Source: a virus. From it: a stretch of DNA of 59,582 nucleotides. The position numbers were made by a program, and so were the translations under genes. The notes under the pieces are model-generated. The model had not been told where the DNA came from. It was given only the letters and a program-made list of their open reading frames with translations, and did not search any database. Of this stretch, positions 15,980 through 31,850 are shown piece after piece. The stretch is taken from positions 1 to 59,582 of the IMG/VR virus record IMGVR_UViG_3300025082_000008. One strand, given 5' to 3'. Position 1 is the first letter of the stretch. Every line of letters begins with the position of its first letter.

Positions 15980-16531
15980 TTGATACTAGCACTTGACATA
16001 TCCACTAGTTGCACAGGTTTCTGCGTCTTCAGTTATGAAGGCACACTTGTTAATAGCGGCGCGATTAGACTTGATAGGGAAAAAGACTTTTTTATGAAAG
16101 TTCGGATGGTCGAGAGAATAATTCGAAAGCTAACAGTAGAGTATGGCTTAAAAGTTGTCGTTATTGAGGAATCATTACAATCATTTCGTCCAGGATTTTC
16201 ATCTGCTAAGACCCTGTTTACGCTATCAAAGTTCAATGGGATAATTCAGTACATATGCTATAACTTAGATATGGAAGTTTTCACACTAAATGTAAACACT
16301 GCTCGTAAGCTTGCTTCAATTAAAATTGACAGAAAGAGCAATGTGTCAACAAAGGAGCAAGTTGTTCAGCAGGTCTCGCAGAACAATGAATTGAGGCTTG
16401 ATTTACCCAAGAAGATACTTAAGAGCGGCCCAAGAAAGGGTCAAGAAGTGTATGAGAATGCTGCGTATGACATTGCAGACGCTTATGTGATAGGTAAGGC
16501 ATATTGCGTTGAAAATCACACAGAATGTTAA
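15980..16531 (+). CDS. RuvC-like Holliday junction resolvase
   Basis: 183 residues. The start is a TTG directly after the upstream stop. It is supported because the first catalytic Asp lies at residue 6 (ILALDISTSCTGFCVF), the usual distance in RuvC/RNase H-fold resolvases. Further landmarks are VVVIEESLQSFRPG (Glu63/Glu64) and the C-terminal YDIADAYVIGKAY (Asp164, Asp167), giving the expected D-E-D/D set. Role: cutting four-way or branched DNA before packaging or during recombination, a job done by endonuclease VII in T4. It sits just upstream of primase and in the same block as the recombination nuclease at 22114. Confidence 0.75.
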   Translation: MILALDISTSCTGFCVFSYEGTLVNSGAIRLDREKDFFMKVRMVERIIRKLTVEYGLKVVVIEESLQSFRPGFSSAKTLFTLSKFNGIIQYICYNLDMEVFTLNVNTARKLASIKIDRKSNVSTKEQVVQQVSQNNELRLDLPKKILKSGPRKGQEVYENAAYDIADAYVIGKAYCVENHTEC

Positions 16532-16543
16532 TATAATCGTTCT

Positions 16544-17500
16544 ATGAGTGTTATCACTGAAAAGCAAAAGATAGAGCTTATAAGGTCTGCTTTTGGTGAA
16601 GGTATAGTTTCAAAAGACTATAAGAATATATCAGTGTCGTGCCCTATATGCGGAAAAACTAAGTCTGTTCACAAAAAAAAGTTATCTGTTTGTCTAGATA
16701 CGGGAATGTATCACTGCTGGGTTTGTGAAGCTAAAGGCAGGAATATTGCTAATCTAGCAAAAAGGACTGGAACATTTCAGAACACTTTAGATAGCTTATA
16801 TGTAATATTTGGTTACCCAAAAGGCGAAGAGCAGGAAATAGTTGAAATATTGAGTCTTCCGTCTGACTTTAAGCTTCTTTGTTTGAATAACAGCAAGGCG
16901 GCAAAGATTGCTAAACATTATCTTAGTTCTCGAGGTTTTGACGAGAAAGACATAACAAGCTACAAGGTAGGGACAAGCAATGAAGATCAATATAATAATA
17001 GGATTATATTCCCGTCATTTAACGATCGACTCGAGCTGAATTTTTTTCTATCAAGGACGTATGACTCAAGACAGAATATTCCTTACAGGAATTGCAAGTT
17101 TAGTAAAAAAGATATTATTTTTAATGAGAATTTTATTGATTGGAACAATACGCTTGTTTTAGTTGAAGGTGTCTTTGATTCTGTAAGAGTTCATGGAAAT
17201 GTAGCATGTATGCTAGGAAGCTGGATCGATGAGACACACTTGCTCTTTAATAAGATAGTGATAAACAAAACACCCGTTATTCTAGCGCTAGACCCAGATG
17301 CCAAGGAGAAGGAACAAAAAATTGCTCAAAAATTATCTGAGTACTGTGTTGATGTTAAGATTGCTAGCAATAAGCTTAAAGACTTTGGGGATATGACACA
17401 TGAAGAAGCACAAAGTTTTATTAACAGTGCTAAACATTTTGATGTTACTGATAGAATAAGATATTTAATAGGTGGAATAAAATCTGGTTCCGTCTATTAA
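16544..17500 (+). CDS. DNA primase (CHC2 zinc finger plus TOPRIM)
   Basis: 318 residues. The N-terminal zinc motif is CPICGKTKS then YHCWVCEAKGRN (two CxxC pairs, residues about 27-65). It is followed by a TOPRIM domain with TLVLVEGVFDSVRV (catalytic Glu) and VILALDPDAKEKEQ (DxD). It synthesises RNA primers for lagging-strand replication. At 318 residues it lacks the RecA-like helicase domain of T7 gp4-type proteins, so the helicase must be encoded elsewhere. There is no strong ribosome site; an AT-rich TTAATATAATCG lies just upstream of the ATG. Followed after 9 bases by a small acidic protein. Confidence 0.8.
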   Translation: MSVITEKQKIELIRSAFGEGIVSKDYKNISVSCPICGKTKSVHKKKLSVCLDTGMYHCWVCEAKGRNIANLAKRTGTFQNTLDSLYVIFGYPKGEEQEIVEILSLPSDFKLLCLNNSKAAKIAKHYLSSRGFDEKDITSYKVGTSNEDQYNNRIIFPSFNDRLELNFFLSRTYDSRQNIPYRNCKFSKKDIIFNENFIDWNNTLVLVEGVFDSVRVHGNVACMLGSWIDETHLLFNKIVINKTPVILALDPDAKEKEQKIAQKLSEYCVDVKIASNKLKDFGDMTHEEAQSFINSAKHFDVTDRIRYLIGGIKSGSVY

Positions 17501-17509
17501 GGTGTAAAT

Positions 17510-17827
17510 ATGAAAAAATTAAGTCGTGCTAGTCTTAGAAAGCTAATTAGAAATGAAGTTCGGAGCATCGTCGATGAAGATGCTCTTCTTTCATCACCTG
17601 ATATAGGCGAGCCTTATTACGTTCCGAGAGATGAGATGGAGTATGATGATCATGACCACAGCCTCAGCGCGCAACCGTGCTCTGCGTGTGGAGATTATCA
17701 TGATGACTCACCCTGCGCAACAGAGCAGGATCCATTTTTAGACACACTTGGCGCAAGATCTGACCTCTATGAACTTTCTGATGTCTACAACAGAACAGGC
17801 AGAAGAAAACGAAATGATAGATCTTGA
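17510..17827 (+). CDS. Small acidic protein with N-terminal "LRKLIRNEV" helix and Cys/His cluster
   Basis: 105 residues of unknown function. The N-terminus (MKKLSRASLRKLIRNEVRSI) is a basic amphipathic helix of a type also found on the proteins at 19210, 30996, 31584 and, at the C-terminus, 39955. The middle has DDHDHS and then CSACGDYHDDSPC, a possible metal-binding Cys/His cluster. The C-terminus is basic. It ends directly before the PAP2-Fic gene start, so the two are probably translated from one message. No enzyme motif was recognised. It could be a virion-packaged or regulatory protein; this is not resolved. Confidence 0.55.
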   Translation: MKKLSRASLRKLIRNEVRSIVDEDALLSSPDIGEPYYVPRDEMEYDDHDHSLSAQPCSACGDYHDDSPCATEQDPFLDTLGARSDLYELSDVYNRTGRRKRNDRS

Positions 17828-19135
17828 ATGCCTTCGCTACAAACTTTATTTGCAGAAACGTCTGACTATAACATAGATAGTAAGCATTTAAAAAAAGTTT
17901 CTAAAGTTTGTAGTCGTCTTGGCAGCGCAGAAAACTTACTACCTTCAATGAGTTATCCGTCAGTTAATTCTGCAGCATTTGATAATGATTTGGATGAAGT
18001 GGTGAGATGTATTAAACACCCACATATGGATAATAGATTTATAAAATGTTCTGATGGCTCAGTTGAAGAAACATTTAAATCGTTTTTAGAAAGAGAGCAT
18101 AATGACTTCATAGACTGGAGTGAAATATCAAAACTATTAGAAGAGGTTGATACAATAGTTTTGAGGCTAAAATACGAGTATAAAAGACCCAGGCCCAAAT
18201 GTTTTTTAATAGATGTCAGTGACAGATATAGAACAATAAAAGATTCGAAATCACCCTCTTTTCCTAGTGGTCATACAGCAATTGCATATTTTTTATCCGG
18301 AATACTATCTAAACTCATTCCAGAGCTTACAGGTGATCTTTTGACATTATCTGAGATGGTAGGACAGTCAAGAATTGAAAATGGTGTACATTTTCCTTCT
18401 GATATTTTGTATGGGAGGCTAGTGGGCGAAATGTTATCTGACAGCTACAATAATGAAGAAAGACGCATAATAGATGGGTTAAAAAGAAATCACTATCGTG
18501 AGTGTAGTCAAAATTTGAGAGATGTTGCAGAAAAGATACGTCCAAGTCACTTGAAGGTAGATGCTTTGGATAGCTACGCAAGGGACCTGGCACAATATAT
18601 TTTTAGAACTAATCAGATAGAGCGATATTCTTTGGACTTCGATGATTGCAATCAATCTGCTCGGGAATTTTTAATGGGTTATCCATCAGACTATGTAACT
18701 GATGATAAACACATAAGCTCAACACTTGACGGAATTGTGTATACAAATCTACTTGAGACTATTGATAGTCCACAAAAAATTATACAGACACACAGGGCGT
18801 TTCATCCCGACGTCATAGAAAGACAAGCCCCCGGTTCTTTACGAGACTTTTCACATGCTTCTCCGTCAGGTACAGCTTACTCAGAACCTCAGGATATTCT
18901 TCATTGTTTGAAACAGTGTTGTAAGATCAAAGATCAACCTGTGCTAAAGCATATTGTCTATGAATGGGTGCACCCATTTTGTGATGGTAACGGTCGTTCT
19001 GGAAGGTTAATTCTAGCGTCAGACTTAGGTTATAACTTTGATATTGCTAACCAGGTTATTGATGACAACTACATTCCAATGTTAAGAGAGTTCATGGAAA
19101 ATACAGATATGAACGATTTAGTAAATAGCTTATGA
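17828..19135 (+). CDS. PAP2-type acid phosphatase / Fic AMP-transferase fusion protein
   Basis: 435 residues in one uninterrupted frame with two complete catalytic signatures. The PAP2 (acid phosphatase/haloperoxidase) part has K115-x6-R122-P123, PSGH at 146-149 and SR-x5-H-x3-D at 181-192 (SRIENGVHFPSD), i.e. all three motifs. The Fic part has HPFCDGNGRSGR at 382-393, the canonical HPFx(D/E)GNGRxxR, preceded by an arm-like segment (PGSLRDFSHASPSG, YSEPQDI). Fic enzymes usually transfer AMP (or another nucleotide-derived group) to a protein hydroxyl; PAP2 enzymes remove phosphate. No signal peptide or membrane segment is seen, so it is probably cytosolic. Upstream of the Fic core, SSTLDG (297-302) resembles the inhibitory (S/T)xxxE(G/N) motif with Asp for Glu. 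Target is unknown; acting on host proteins or nucleotides is inference. Confidence 0.85.
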   Translation: MPSLQTLFAETSDYNIDSKHLKKVSKVCSRLGSAENLLPSMSYPSVNSAAFDNDLDEVVRCIKHPHMDNRFIKCSDGSVEETFKSFLEREHNDFIDWSEISKLLEEVDTIVLRLKYEYKRPRPKCFLIDVSDRYRTIKDSKSPSFPSGHTAIAYFLSGILSKLIPELTGDLLTLSEMVGQSRIENGVHFPSDILYGRLVGEMLSDSYNNEERRIIDGLKRNHYRECSQNLRDVAEKIRPSHLKVDALDSYARDLAQYIFRTNQIERYSLDFDDCNQSAREFLMGYPSDYVTDDKHISSTLDGIVYTNLLETIDSPQKIIQTHRAFHPDVIERQAPGSLRDFSHASPSGTAYSEPQDILHCLKQCCKIKDQPVLKHIVYEWVHPFCDGNGRSGRLILASDLGYNFDIANQVIDDNYIPMLREFMENTDMNDLVNSL

Positions 19136-19209: not shown

Positions 19210-19644
19210 ATGATTCCAAAGCTGACACAATCACAGATCAAAATGATCAAAGAAGAGCTTCAAAAGAATGTTGAAGAATTCGACGCAGAAGAAGACCTTG
19301 ATACTGTTGACTTAGCAGCTGTTAAAAAGCGTTATTCGTATGAGTTAAACGACGACGGAACGATGCATTCAGATGAGAAAACAATCAATAGGCAGATCAA
19401 GCGAAAGATGCTTCGAGAAGCCAGAAATACGAAGAAAGTATCTGTTGCGTGGAATTTAGAGGCAGGTGATACTGTCCAATTTAAGAAGAACGGAACAATT
19501 GTATACGGGATGATCGTAAAGCAGTCAGCAGATGGAAGTTACAGAAACGTATCAGAAGCAAAGTATAGAGGGAAAGTTCTCGTTATGTGTGCTTCTGGCA
19601 ATATCTGGATGAATCCAAATAAGCTTGAAAAGCTTGATGACTAA
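19210..19644 (+). CDS. Small protein with N-terminal helix motif and SH3-like C-terminal domain
   Basis: 144 residues, with GGAGAGG just upstream of the ATG. The N-terminus (PKLTQSQIKMIKEELQKNV) is the recurrent helix motif seen in several small proteins of this phage. An acidic linker follows. The C-terminal half is beta-rich (VSVAWNLEAGDTVQFKKNG, VYGMIVKQSADG, GKVLVMCASGNIWMNP), consistent with a small SH3/KOW-like barrel that could bind nucleic acid or protein. It has its own promoter upstream and is followed by another copy of that promoter. Function is unknown. Confidence 0.6.
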   Translation: MIPKLTQSQIKMIKEELQKNVEEFDAEEDLDTVDLAAVKKRYSYELNDDGTMHSDEKTINRQIKRKMLREARNTKKVSVAWNLEAGDTVQFKKNGTIVYGMIVKQSADGSYRNVSEAKYRGKVLVMCASGNIWMNPNKLEKLDD

Positions 19645-19709: not shown

Positions 19710-20762
19710 ATGAATATCAAAACCTTCGTTCAAGTTATTTCGGCTCTCCCACCCCATATCGCAGTGTTGGCAAAGGGACCAACTGGAATCGGTAAGTCAG
19801 ACATCTTTAAGGCTGTTGGAAATAATCTTTCCATGCCTGTTATCGACCGTCGACTGTCTCAGATGACAGAGGGCGATATCATCGGGCTCCCTGAGCTCAC
19901 TGACGGCATCACACGATTTGCGCCAGTGGACTGGTTTGTCCGGGCTTGCAATGAGCCGGTCGTTCTGTTCTTTGATGAGCTCAACAGAGCTACAATTGAG
20001 GTTCAGCAATGCGCGTTCCAGATCGTTCTTGATAGAGAGTTGAACGGGCACAAGTTGCATCCTGAGACTCGGGTCTATACTGCGATCAATGAAGGTAGTG
20101 AGTACCAAGTCACAGACATGGATCCTGCCTTGCTTCGTCGTTTCTTTGTAGCCACTCTAGAGCCTACGACTGAGGACTGGCTCGTCTGGGCGGAAGGTGC
20201 GGGCGTTGATGATGTCATCACTTCGTTCATTAAGAAATATCCCACACATCTCCGACATGACGGTGAGTTGCAGCCAGGAAAGGTGTATCCAAACCCGGCT
20301 TCGTGGGATCGCTTGGGTCAATCCCTTTGTTTCGCGAACATGGCACCCTCTGATTTGATTGGAGGAGAGGTACCTGACATTCTTTTCTCGATGTGCACGG
20401 GATTCATCGGCACAGAGACTGCTGTGGCATTTACTGATTACGTTAGAAATTACGAGATCAAGTTCTGTGCTGAGGATGTTCTTAACAACTGGAAGTCTAA
20501 GAAGTCTGGAATTAACAAGCTCACGAACGACAAGAAGAACGATCTTCTTAGTCAGATTGTGACATTCAGCAAGGATGTAGAGCTTACGCTAACTCAGGCA
20601 AAAAATGCATGCGCATTCGCAGCAACTTGCTCTGATGAGATCCTCGTTAATTTTATGAACTCAGTGATGGAGACCAAGAATATTCCTAACATCAGGAAGG
20701 TCCACAAGCACATCGCTCAGAGGGTTGTTGAGATCGTGAATGCTGCTCAAGCTATGAAGTAA
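19710..20762 (+). CDS. MoxR-type AAA+ ATPase
   Basis: 350 residues with an AAAGGA ribosome site. Walker A is GPTGIGKS (residues 23-30) and Walker B is VVLFFDELNRA (Asp89-Glu90). An arginine-finger-like DPALLRRFF lies near residue 140. The short N-terminus and "DELNRA" wording are typical of MoxR/RavA-like AAA+ ATPases, which work with von Willebrand A partners as chaperones that remodel or activate protein complexes. Exactly such a partner follows at 20817. Codons contain more C/G-ending forms than neighbouring genes, suggesting high expression. It has its own promoter, as does its partner. The substrate is unknown. Confidence 0.8.
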   Translation: MNIKTFVQVISALPPHIAVLAKGPTGIGKSDIFKAVGNNLSMPVIDRRLSQMTEGDIIGLPELTDGITRFAPVDWFVRACNEPVVLFFDELNRATIEVQQCAFQIVLDRELNGHKLHPETRVYTAINEGSEYQVTDMDPALLRRFFVATLEPTTEDWLVWAEGAGVDDVITSFIKKYPTHLRHDGELQPGKVYPNPASWDRLGQSLCFANMAPSDLIGGEVPDILFSMCTGFIGTETAVAFTDYVRNYEIKFCAEDVLNNWKSKKSGINKLTNDKKNDLLSQIVTFSKDVELTLTQAKNACAFAATCSDEILVNFMNSVMETKNIPNIRKVHKHIAQRVVEIVNAAQAMK

Positions 20763-20816: not shown

Positions 20817-22106
20817 ATGACTCCCCAAGCACAAATTAGCGAAGATATCGCTACATGCACTCCGACTCTCACAGAAGCGAGGTTCAGTAAGATCTTGATT
20901 AAGTTCTTGCTCAATGAACCTTTCTTTTCTTCTATTGTCAGGAATCTCAGAAAGGAAAAGACATATAGCATTCCAACTGCAGGTGTGACATTTATTGATG
21001 GGTCAATGTCGTTGTACTGGAATCCAGATTTTATCTCTAGTCTTAACACAAGAAAGACGTTTGGTCTGCTTAAGCATGAGTGTTATCACCTTATTTTTAG
21101 ACATCTGACGTCAAGAAAGCAAGATCCTCATCTTTTTTGGAACATTGCAACTGATCTTGCGATTAATAGCACAATTCCTGAAGATGAGTTGCCAGACGGT
21201 GGTCTGGTTCCAGGAAAGCCTCTTGAGATCAAGTCAGACTCACCGCTTCCAGACGATGTCAGAGAGCAGGCAGAAAAGATGTCAGCTTTTATTGAGTCAT
21301 TGCCACGGAATCGTGCATCTGAGTGGTACATGGAACGACTCATGGAAAATCCTGAGATTCAAGAAGCGTGCAAGACAGTTTTTGAACCGGGCGAACCGGG
21401 TGAAGGCTCAGCTGCAGGATTCGACTTTCACTTTGATGATGACATGTCTGACGGCGAGCGTGAGATGATTGATGCTCGAGTAAAGAAGATCGTTGGTGAA
21501 GCTGTTGAAAGAGCAGATAGAACTAATTCGTGGGGCTCTGCACCAAGTGAGATGAGGTCAAAGATTCGATCAATGCTCGATGACACTGTTGACTGGAAGA
21601 AGGTCTTGCATTACTTCTGCGGAACTAAGCAGAGAGCAAATAAGTCACGTACATTCAAGAGAATTAATAGAAAGTATCCTTACATTCATCCTGGTCGCAA
21701 GATTAAGCACACGTCAAATCTTGCAATTTACATCGATCAGAGCGGTAGCTGCTCTGACGACGACATCGCTATGTTCTTTGGTGCTCTGTCTGATTTCTCA
21801 AAGGAAGTCAAGTTCACAGTTTACCACTTTGACACTAGTGTTGATGAGAAAAGTAAGCATGTCTGGAGAAAGCGTCAACCGCACCGAGATCCCTATAGAA
21901 CGAGAAGCGGTGGGACTTGTTTCGATTCTGTCGAGACACACTTCAGAACAACACGTGGCGAATACGATGGATACATCATTATGACTGATGGTGCTGCTCC
22001 TAAACCAAAAAATTGTATTTCTAAGAGATGTTGGGTAGTATTACCAGGACAACAGCTTCATTTTGCACCTGAAAAGAGGGACACAGTAGTGACGATGAAG
22101 TGTTAA
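20817..22106 (+). CDS. DUF2201-like metallopeptidase/VWA protein, MoxR partner
   Basis: 429 residues, AGAGGA ribosome site. The N-terminal half has HECYHLIFRH (HExxH zinc motif, His87-Glu88, His91), then an acidic segment. The C-terminal half has a VWA-like MIDAS sequence IYIDQSGSCSD (Asp307-x-Ser-x-Ser) and later RSGGTCFDSVE and YIIMTDGAAPKP. This order (HExxH domain plus VWA-like domain) matches the DUF2201 family, typically paired with MoxR ATPases, as here. The pair probably acts as a protein-remodelling or proteolytic machine in the host cell. Whether the HExxH site is an active protease is unknown. Confidence 0.75.
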   Translation: MTPQAQISEDIATCTPTLTEARFSKILIKFLLNEPFFSSIVRNLRKEKTYSIPTAGVTFIDGSMSLYWNPDFISSLNTRKTFGLLKHECYHLIFRHLTSRKQDPHLFWNIATDLAINSTIPEDELPDGGLVPGKPLEIKSDSPLPDDVREQAEKMSAFIESLPRNRASEWYMERLMENPEIQEACKTVFEPGEPGEGSAAGFDFHFDDDMSDGEREMIDARVKKIVGEAVERADRTNSWGSAPSEMRSKIRSMLDDTVDWKKVLHYFCGTKQRANKSRTFKRINRKYPYIHPGRKIKHTSNLAIYIDQSGSCSDDDIAMFFGALSDFSKEVKFTVYHFDTSVDEKSKHVWRKRQPHRDPYRTRSGGTCFDSVETHFRTTRGEYDGYIIMTDGAAPKPKNCISKRCWVVLPGQQLHFAPEKRDTVVTMKC

Positions 22107-30390: not shown

Positions 30391-30996
30391 ATGAGTAGCC
30401 TTACAGTTTTAAGAGAGTGGACACCAATATCTTGCTCAAAAAAGATGCTAAAAGAGTCAAAAGAAAAATATGGTAAAGTAATGTTAAGCGGCATTATTCA
30501 AAGAGCAAATACGTTAAATCAAAACGGAAGAATCTATCCTAAGTCAATTCTAGAAAGAGAGATAATGAATTATCAGAAGCTGATTAAGGAAAATCGCGCG
30601 CTAGGCGAGTGTGATCATCCAGACTCATCTGTTGTTGAGCTAAAAAATGTTTCTCATATTGTTAGAGAAGCACGCATGGAAGGTGATGATGTTTACGGGA
30701 CTATTGAAATATTAGATACACCAAGCGGAAAGATAATACAGAGCTTGATTGAAAGTGAAATAACACTAGGGATCAGCTCAAGAGGTGTGGGTTCAACAAC
30801 ATCAAAAGGAGATTCTCAAGTTGTTCAAGATGATTTTCAGTTAATTTGTTTTGATATGGTAAGTGAGCCCAGCACTCCTGGCGCGTACATGCTTCGCGAG
30901 GGAAAGACAATCCAGAGAAAAGAGTTAGACAAATTTTTTAACAGATCAGACAAAATTGATAGAATTTTTAATGAAATATTAAGCTGGGATAAGTGA
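30391..30996 (+). CDS. Prohead core protease (T4 gp21-like)
   Basis: 201 residues. The core has SGIIQRANTLNQNGRIYP (typical N-terminal strand), GECDHPDSS with the catalytic His76, and LGISSRGVGS with the catalytic Ser near 129-130. This His/Ser arrangement is that of the herpesvirus-assemblin-like phage proteases (T4 gp21). It matures the head by cutting scaffold and capsid proteins, usually after (L/I)xE. Its stop overlaps the start of the next gene (TGATG). Confidence 0.9.
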   Translation: MSSLTVLREWTPISCSKKMLKESKEKYGKVMLSGIIQRANTLNQNGRIYPKSILEREIMNYQKLIKENRALGECDHPDSSVVELKNVSHIVREARMEGDDVYGTIEILDTPSGKIIQSLIESEITLGISSRGVGSTTSKGDSQVVQDDFQLICFDMVSEPSTPGAYMLREGKTIQRKELDKFFNRSDKIDRIFNEILSWDK

Positions 30997-31514
30997 TGAA
31001 GCTAGATAAACAGGCACTTAAGACTATTGTTAAAGAATGTTTGGTTGAGATATTAGCTGAAGGAATAGTTGCACCTGACCGCGGAAAGTCGTCAAGAAAA
31101 AAGAGAGCGCTATCTGAGGCAATTCAGGCTAGAAGCGAAAAAAGTCGCTCAATTGAGGGTCTCGGTGTGTCAAATGATACACGAAGAACCCGCGCTGATC
31201 CTGTGCGAAAGCCCAGCTATCTTGATAGTATTAGGTTTGGTGATGAAAATGGCGCCAGTGAACAAACAACAAGGCACAGCCAAGCAGTTTCTAATGTGAC
31301 TAAGTCAATAACAAAAGACCCGCTGATGCAGGAACTGTTGGCAGACACAGCAAATACAACCCTGCAAGAGCAAGTTTCAGCTGAGGGCTCTGGTGCTAGA
31401 TCTGCTGTATTGTCAAAACCTGCTGATGAGGCAGCCGCGATTGTGAGACAAAATGAGCCTGAAGATATTTTTGGCGAATCTGCAAAAAATTGGGCGACTT
31501 TAGCGTTTAGTTGA
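30996..31514 (+). CDS. Small head-region protein with recurrent N-terminal helix
   Basis: 172 residues from the ATG at 30996; a GTG one codon upstream is also possible. The N-terminus (MKLDKQALKTIVKECLVEIL) carries the recurrent short helix of this phage. The rest is polar, Ala/Ser/Glu-rich and probably disordered, ending FGESAKNWATLAFS. It lies directly after the protease and may be a prohead core component that is cleaved or packaged; this is inferred from context. Confidence 0.55.
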   Translation: MKLDKQALKTIVKECLVEILAEGIVAPDRGKSSRKKRALSEAIQARSEKSRSIEGLGVSNDTRRTRADPVRKPSYLDSIRFGDENGASEQTTRHSQAVSNVTKSITKDPLMQELLADTANTTLQEQVSAEGSGARSAVLSKPADEAAAIVRQNEPEDIFGESAKNWATLAFS

Positions 31515-31583: not shown

Positions 31584-31850
31584 ATGGCCAAAGTAAGAAA
31601 GTTGACACCTCGACGTTTAAAGAGAATCATTGAAGAAGAAAAAAGAAGGCTCAGAATTTCAAAGCCCAGGCCTGTGACTAAGTCAAAGCCCAGGACAAGA
31701 AAGAAGAAGCACAATTCGTCATCAAGTGTCGTAGCACAGATAAGAGCGCTAGCCGAATTAAAGCGCCGCGAGACAAAGGCAGCTAAGCGCCTAAAGAGAA
31801 TCTATGAAGCCCGGAAGTTAATCAAGAAAGAATTGATTAGGAGACTATAA
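31584..31850 (+). CDS. Small very basic protein, possible internal head or DNA-binding protein
   Basis: 88 residues with a strong GAGGAGGA ribosome site. The protein is dominated by Lys/Arg (VRKLTPRRLKRIIEEEKRRL, then repeated K/R-rich helices), with a Ser-rich centre. The N-terminus again shows the L-x-x-x-x-L-x-x-I-I-x-E-E pattern. High positive charge and position in the head cassette suggest a DNA-condensing internal protein or prohead core component. A weak sigma70-like TTGAAA, 15 bases, TATAAT lies upstream at 31524-31550. Its TAA overlaps the next ATG. Confidence 0.55.
   Translation: MAKVRKLTPRRLKRIIEEEKRRLRISKPRPVTKSKPRTRKKKHNSSSSVVAQIRALAELKRRETKAAKRLKRIYEARKLIKKELIRRL

What the first reader, a model, noticed from the sequence alone, without database searches (positions are those of the whole stretch)
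17828..19135. A phage protein that joins a PAP2 phosphatase to a Fic AMP-transferase
One uninterrupted 435-residue frame carries the complete three-part PAP2 signature (K115-x6-RP, PSGH 146-149, SR-x5-H-x3-D 181-192) and a complete Fic motif (HPFCDGNGRSGR, from His382). Both sets of catalytic residues are intact, which argues for two working active sites. Fic enzymes add nucleotide-derived groups and PAP2 enzymes remove phosphates, so the fusion could write and trim a modification, consume a by-product such as pyrophosphate, or act on host nucleotide signals. It lies beside resolvase and primase genes and before a MoxR/VWA pair. I know of no described phage system with this architecture, but cannot search.
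Basis: partly seen in the sequence, partly recalled or inferred. Interest (0 to 1): 0.75.

Follow-up and report, generated by a model that had tools for sequence, protein, structure and literature searches.

The report
Phage phosphatase fused to Fic enzyme
A group of uncultured T4-like phages carries one gene that fuses a soluble phosphatase to a protein-modifying (Fic) enzyme; the phosphatase site is kept in every relative, the Fic site is intact in most but lost in one branch, and the protein's front end resembles the packaging tag of a T4 protein that is injected into the host.

Summary
ORF 17828-19135 (+, 435 aa) passes the Pfam cut-offs for PAP2 (2e-16) and Fic (1e-6), and its AlphaFold model matches soluble class A acid phosphatases and class II Fic proteins. 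It is a conserved family, not an accident: 22 distinct full-length proteins are known here, at the same locus in uncultured T4-like phages. No fusion was found in 50,697 annotated phage records, 72,556 plasmids, BFVD, or the bacterial genomes sampled.

(1) The Fic part is class II-like: an inhibitory-helix motif [ST]xxxE lies 117 residues before the catalytic His. (2) PAP2 catalytic residues are intact in all 20 aligned proteins, but the Fic site is destroyed in one five-member clade whose dead Fic domain is still under purifying selection. (3) PAP2-only and Fic-only relatives occur in other phages, so the activities are modular. (4) The N-terminus (M-x2-L/I-x2-LF-x-E) is as conserved as the PAP2 core and resembles that of T4 Alt, a packaged, injected ADP-ribosyltransferase.

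Best model: a soluble phosphatase plus an auto-inhibited AMP-transferase, probably packaged and injected as a host-takeover or counter-defence effector. Substrates and packaging are inferred, not shown.

The parts
17828..19135 (+). PAP2-Fic fusion protein, 435 aa
   Evidence: family alignment; AF2 model
17828..17860 (+). conserved N-terminal tag (residues 1-11, MPSLQTLFAET); capsid-targeting-like, resembles the T4 Alt N-terminus MELITELFDED
   Evidence: M1, L7, F8 invariant in 20/20; conservation equals PAP2 core; T4 Alt read from NC_000866; function inferred
17933..18442 (+). soluble PAP2 domain (about residues 36-205)
   Evidence: Pfam PF01569; PDB class A acid phosphatases by sequence and fold
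18170..18196 (+). PAP2 motif 1, K115-x6-RP (residues 115-123)
   Evidence: K115 and R122 invariant in 20/20
18263..18274 (+). PAP2 motif 2, PSGH (146-149)
   Evidence: H149 invariant in 20/20
18368..18403 (+). PAP2 motif 3, SR-x5-H-x3-D (181-192)
   Evidence: R182, H188, D192 invariant in 20/20
18560..19132 (+). class II-like Fic domain (about residues 245-435)
   Evidence: Pfam PF02661; Foldseek to CbFic2 8cil, FICD, SoFic
18608..18622 (+). Fic inhibitory-helix motif T261-N-Q-I-E265 ([ST]xxxE)
   Evidence: present in 15/15 Fic-intact relatives, absent as a motif from the five Fic-dead ones; at the end of AF2 helix 243-264
18971..19006 (+). Fic catalytic motif HPFCDGNGRSGR (382-393)
   Evidence: intact in 15/20; H382, D386 and R393 lost in L014, L015, L016, L019, L029
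17510..17827 (+). upstream partner ORF (105 aa here, up to 248 aa in relatives): leader 'MxKLSxxxLRKLIxxE', Cys-rich middle, conserved C-terminal domain in most relatives
   Evidence: directly upstream in all 20 loci examined; function unknown
15980..16531 (+). RuvC-like Holliday junction resolvase
   Evidence: phrog_159, 2e-16
16544..17500 (+). DNA primase
   Evidence: phrog_47, 5e-41
19210..19644 (+). downstream small ORF, conserved in position in most relatives
19710..20762 (+). MoxR-type AAA ATPase
   Evidence: AAA_5 2e-9; phrog_1297
20817..22106 (+). VWA / DUF2201 protein
   Evidence: PF13203 5e-20
30391..30996 (+). gp21-type head maturation protease, the kind of enzyme that would process capsid-targeting tags
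   Evidence: phrog_207, 3.6e-53

Best explanation
A bifunctional phage effector. The N-terminal half is a soluble, class A acid-phosphatase-like PAP2 phosphatase (His149, His188, Lys115, Arg122, Arg182), expected to hydrolyse phosphomonoester or phosphoanhydride substrates in the host cytoplasm. The C-terminal half is a class II-like Fic transferase: His382 catalyses transfer of AMP (or another NMP) from NTP to a host or phage protein, and Glu265 restrains it by pairing with Arg393. The conserved Alt-like N-terminal tag most likely loads the protein into the prohead core, so that it is injected with the DNA and acts at once on host regulation or defence. The two catalytic modules are independent cargo domains on one tag rather than steps of one reaction, and PAP2 is the constant function. 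Shown: the two domains, intact motifs, family conservation, one clade-specific Fic loss, modular relatives. Inferred: catalysis, auto-inhibition, packaging, injection, targets.
For: Both domains over curated cut-offs. AF2 pLDDT 82, pTM 0.80; Foldseek to acid phosphatase 7f17 (TMt 0.64) and to Fic proteins 8cil, FICD, SoFic. PAP2 catalytic residues 20/20; Fic motif 15/20 with [ST]xxxE present in the same 15. Tree: fusion proteins group together (99/98), Fic-dead proteins one group within them (93/84). Dead Fic domain still under purifying selection: L015/L016 dN/dS 0.11; AF2 pLDDT 87.8 for L014. PAP2-only relatives and standalone Fic proteins carrying the [ST]xxxE motif (L109, L110) show modularity. 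N-terminal tag conservation 3.01 bits per column against 2.23 for residues 11-35 and 3.0 for the PAP2 core. Among 863 ORFs of these loci only the PAP2-Fic genes and two antisense frames match the tag pattern, and in the T4 stretches read only Alt does. Alt is packaged, ejected and cut by gp21 (PMC5694885, PMC9026906). A gp21-type protease is encoded here.
Against: No proteomics, assay or host is known. The window protein lacks a canonical [LI]xE cleavage site within residues 1-20 (it has FAE at 8-10); 12 of 20 relatives have one. The tag resemblance to Alt rests on a few positions. In another phage lineage an N-terminal tag sits on about a third of plus-strand ORFs, so such tags need not mean packaging. 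The last position of the class II motif (G/N) is not conserved. Substrates cannot be deduced. Foldseek TM-scores against Fic structures are modest (target-normalised 0.35-0.43).
Confidence: 0.5

Rival explanations
1. Same bifunctional enzyme, but made and used inside the infected cell during replication and not packaged; the tag serves another purpose such as localisation or oligomerisation.
For: The gene lies between primase/resolvase and gp46/47-type genes; no canonical cleavage site in the window protein; in another lineage N-terminal tags occur on about a third of plus-strand ORFs.
Against: Tag similarity to packaged T4 Alt and unusually high conservation of the first ten residues; the genome mixes structural and replication genes here, so position says little.
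Confidence: 0.3
2. Coupled enzyme: PAP2 removes the pyrophosphate or nucleotide product of the Fic reaction, or trims the Fic modification.
For: The fusion itself; in L057 a PAP2 domain is likewise fused to a nucleotidyltransferase (PolyA_pol head).
Against: PAP2 site kept in five relatives whose Fic site is destroyed; PAP2-only and Fic-only relatives.
Confidence: 0.1
3. The Fic domain is chiefly a binding or regulatory module for the PAP2 phosphatase, with AMP transfer of little importance even where the motif is intact.
For: Dead Fic domain retained, confidently modelled and under purifying selection in one clade.
Against: Catalytic motif and inhibitory motif both intact in 15/20 at about 30-45% overall identity, which suggests selection for catalysis.
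Confidence: 0.1

Closest known systems
Class A non-specific acid phosphatases (PhoN/PhoC; P. aeruginosa acid phosphatase 7F17) and the 'diffusible PAP2' group of the SidL paper (PMC13431035)
   Same: Soluble PAP2 fold, full three-part signature, best sequence and fold match
   Different: Known class A enzymes are single-domain and, from general knowledge, secreted; this one has no evident signal peptide and carries a Fic domain. The SidL paper notes possible conflict roles of diffusible PAP2 proteins, but its held main text mentions neither Fic nor phage
Class II Fic AMP-transferases (SoFic, CbFic2, human FICD)
   Same: HPFxDGNGRxxR, inhibitory [ST]xxxE motif 117 residues upstream, fold match
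   Different: PAP2 instead of the usual partner domains; last position of the inhibitory motif not conserved as G/N; substrate unknown
T4 Alt and T4 internal proteins (capsid-targeting sequence, CTS)
   Same: Short conserved N-terminal tag resembling MELITELFDED on a host-modifying type of enzyme, in a T4-like phage with a gp21-type protease
   Different: No similarity beyond the tag; cleavage site not canonical in the window protein; packaging not shown

Membership tests
PAP2 / class A acid phosphatase-like | K-x6-RP ... PSGH ... SR-x5-H-x3-D | tested here: met
   20/20 relatives keep the catalytic residues
PAP2 / class A acid phosphatase-like | soluble all-helical PAP2 fold | tested here: met
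   Foldseek 7f17 E 3e-5, TMt 0.64
PAP2 / class A acid phosphatase-like | phosphatase activity | not testable with these tools
   no assay
Fic (Fido) AMP-transferase | HPFx[DE]GNGRxxR | tested here: met
   intact in 15 of 20 aligned relatives, lost in 5
Fic (Fido) AMP-transferase | Fic fold | tested here: met
   Foldseek 8cil, 7cb8, FICD, SoFic with probability 1.00, modest TM-scores
Class II Fic | [S/T]xxxE[G/N] inhibitory helix N-terminal to the Fic core | tested here: inconclusive
   [ST]xxxE met in 15/15 Fic-intact relatives; the final G/N position is met only in some and not in the window protein
Class II Fic | AMP transfer relieved by Glu mutation | not testable with these tools
   no assay
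T4-type packaged internal protein (CTS-bearing) | conserved short N-terminal targeting peptide | tested here: inconclusive
   conserved and Alt-like but targeting not shown
T4-type packaged internal protein (CTS-bearing) | gp21 cleavage site [LI]xE in the propeptide | tested here: not met
   not in the window protein (FAE instead), present in 12 of 20 relatives; hence not filed as a member
T4-type packaged internal protein (CTS-bearing) | present in the virion | not testable with these tools
   needs mass spectrometry

The most novel reading that the evidence does not exclude
A virion-delivered, two-headed effector that combines protein AMP-transfer with a phosphatase: an AMP-transfer counterpart of T4 Alt, in which the phosphatase is the constant counter-defence or metabolic activity and the Fic domain is a clade-variable second head, catalytically dead in one branch.
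Probability: 0.35. Interest if true: 0.8.

Novelty: new variant of a known kind. Interest (0 to 1): 0.58.

Why it matters
Phage proteins that rewrite host proteins at the moment of infection are known mainly as ADP-ribosyltransferases such as T4 Alt. A phage family that may do this by AMP transfer, joined to a phosphatase, would add a second chemistry. The natural Fic-dead clade is a built-in control: comparing it with Fic-intact relatives can separate the two activities.

Tried and rejected
Apparent 58% coverage hit in phage record MT835472: a PAP2-only ORF next to a MoxR-type ORF in a bacterial-looking stretch, not a fusion. Plasmids: PAP2-only matches in the rows listed, none covering 80% of the query. 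Phage records with the Fic half of L017: no match. BFVD: single-domain matches only. Reviews of polyvalent proteins and of jumbo phages mention neither domain. Tblastn of a consensus leader peptide in phage records: no match, which for a 22-residue query says little. The MoxR/VWA pair as an obligatory partner: rejected, since absent at the locus in L005, L007 and L017.

Full report
Observation. Pfam places PAP2 at 113-202 and Fic at 319-396, both above their curated cut-offs. Sequence search of the PDB finds class A acid phosphatases for the first half (7f18, 4e-10) and, weakly, Fic proteins for the second. An AlphaFold2 model from eight family members (pLDDT 82, pTM 0.80) matches acid phosphatase 7f17 and the Fic proteins CbFic2, FICD and SoFic. 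The window is a 59,582-base virus record of a T4-like phage with terminase, portal, gp21-type protease and major head protein.

A conserved family. Relatives of the neighbouring primase led to full-length PAP2-Fic proteins at the same position. Profile scans raised this to 20 distinct aligned sequences, counting a near-identical contig of the window's phage as the window copy, and two more, L099 and L102. The locus order resolvase, primase, small leader ORF, PAP2-Fic, small ORF, gp46/47-type gene is shared by the loci listed in full; the MoxR/VWA pair is present in some.

Two active sites with different fates. K115, R122, H149, R182, H188 and D192 are invariant in all 20. H382, D386 and R393 are intact in 15 and replaced in five: L014, L015, L016, L019 (Ala at 382) and L029 (Lys at 382). 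A [ST]xxxE motif, the core of the class II Fic inhibitory helix, lies 117 residues before the catalytic His in the window protein and is present in all 15 Fic-intact proteins. As a motif it is absent from the five others, although in two of them a Glu is aligned at that position. The last position of the published motif (G/N) is not conserved here. On a tree of the PAP2 part the fusion proteins group together (99/98) and the Fic-dead ones form one group within them (93/84), consistent with one fusion and one loss, although the root is not fixed. The dead Fic domain is not decaying at random: dN/dS for L015/L016 is 0.11 against 0.10 for PAP2 (other pairs have near-saturated synonymous sites). 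The L014 model is confident and still finds FICD, behind the acid phosphatases.

Modularity. The same scan found many PAP2-only phage proteins, including large fusions such as L057 (PolyA_pol head, PAP2, topoisomerase IB). A scan with the Fic half found standalone phage Fic proteins (L109, L110) with the same inhibitory and catalytic motifs and a different N-terminal leader. So each half occurs alone.

The N-terminus. M1, L7 and F8 are invariant in 20/20 and the first ten columns are as conserved as the PAP2 core, while residues 11-35 are not. The pattern matches the N-terminus of T4 Alt, read here from NC_000866 as MELITELFDEDTT. Alt is a packaged ADP-ribosyltransferase, ejected into the host and cut by gp21 after ITE-6 (PMC5694885, PMC9026906). 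T4 internal proteins act against early host defences (PMC9391042). This is the basis for proposing packaging and injection. Against it, the window protein has no canonical [LI]xE site near its start, and other phages carry N-terminal tags on many genes, so the inference is moderate.

Mechanism and novelty. The best model is an effector with two independent catalytic heads, PAP2 being the constant one. Substrates are unknown; AMP as the transferred group rests on the canonical motif and established Fic biochemistry. No paper found describes the fusion. The closest conceptual lead is the report that diffusible PAP2 proteins may act in biological conflict (PMC13431035). I therefore call it a new variant of known kinds: known domains in a conserved phage architecture for which I found no description.

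Noticed in passing
L032-L069 PAP2-only loci, e.g. L053:489-6518, L036, L040, L041: In a set of these uncultured phage loci 115 of 338 distinct plus-strand ORFs begin with a shared peptide M-(x)-W-x-x-[IV]-[LI]-K, against 2 of 430 minus-strand ORFs; runs of consecutive genes carry it, while the DNA ligase and protease ORFs of L036 do not. A lineage-wide N-terminal tag of unknown purpose.
   Followed up: partly
window 17510-17827, 30993-31514, 31584-31850; L008; L109; L110:2489-5130: Another recurrent N-terminal leader, MKITKxxLRxIIxEE-like, on many otherwise unrelated phage proteins; a strict pattern gives 27 distinct hits in 3,337 ORFs, all on the + strand. Four ORFs close together in L110 carry a version of it, a standalone Fic protein among them.
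   Followed up: partly
window 17510-17827; upstream ORF in all 20 loci: The gene directly before PAP2-Fic is always a leader-bearing, mostly Cys-rich ORF; most relatives have a conserved C-terminal domain (YMAKxxLYKxxKYAxKLxxMIPDG...VYHxLDY) that the window copy lacks. No PHROG or NCBIfam match for the L024 copy.
   Followed up: partly
L057:4948-10086: A 1713-residue phage protein joins a PolyA_pol-type nucleotidyltransferase head, a PAP2 domain and a topoisomerase IB core.
   Followed up: no
L071:7743-10202: An 820-residue PAP2 protein starting MKSFLQTIQEES with a long C-terminal part that has no Pfam match.
   Followed up: no
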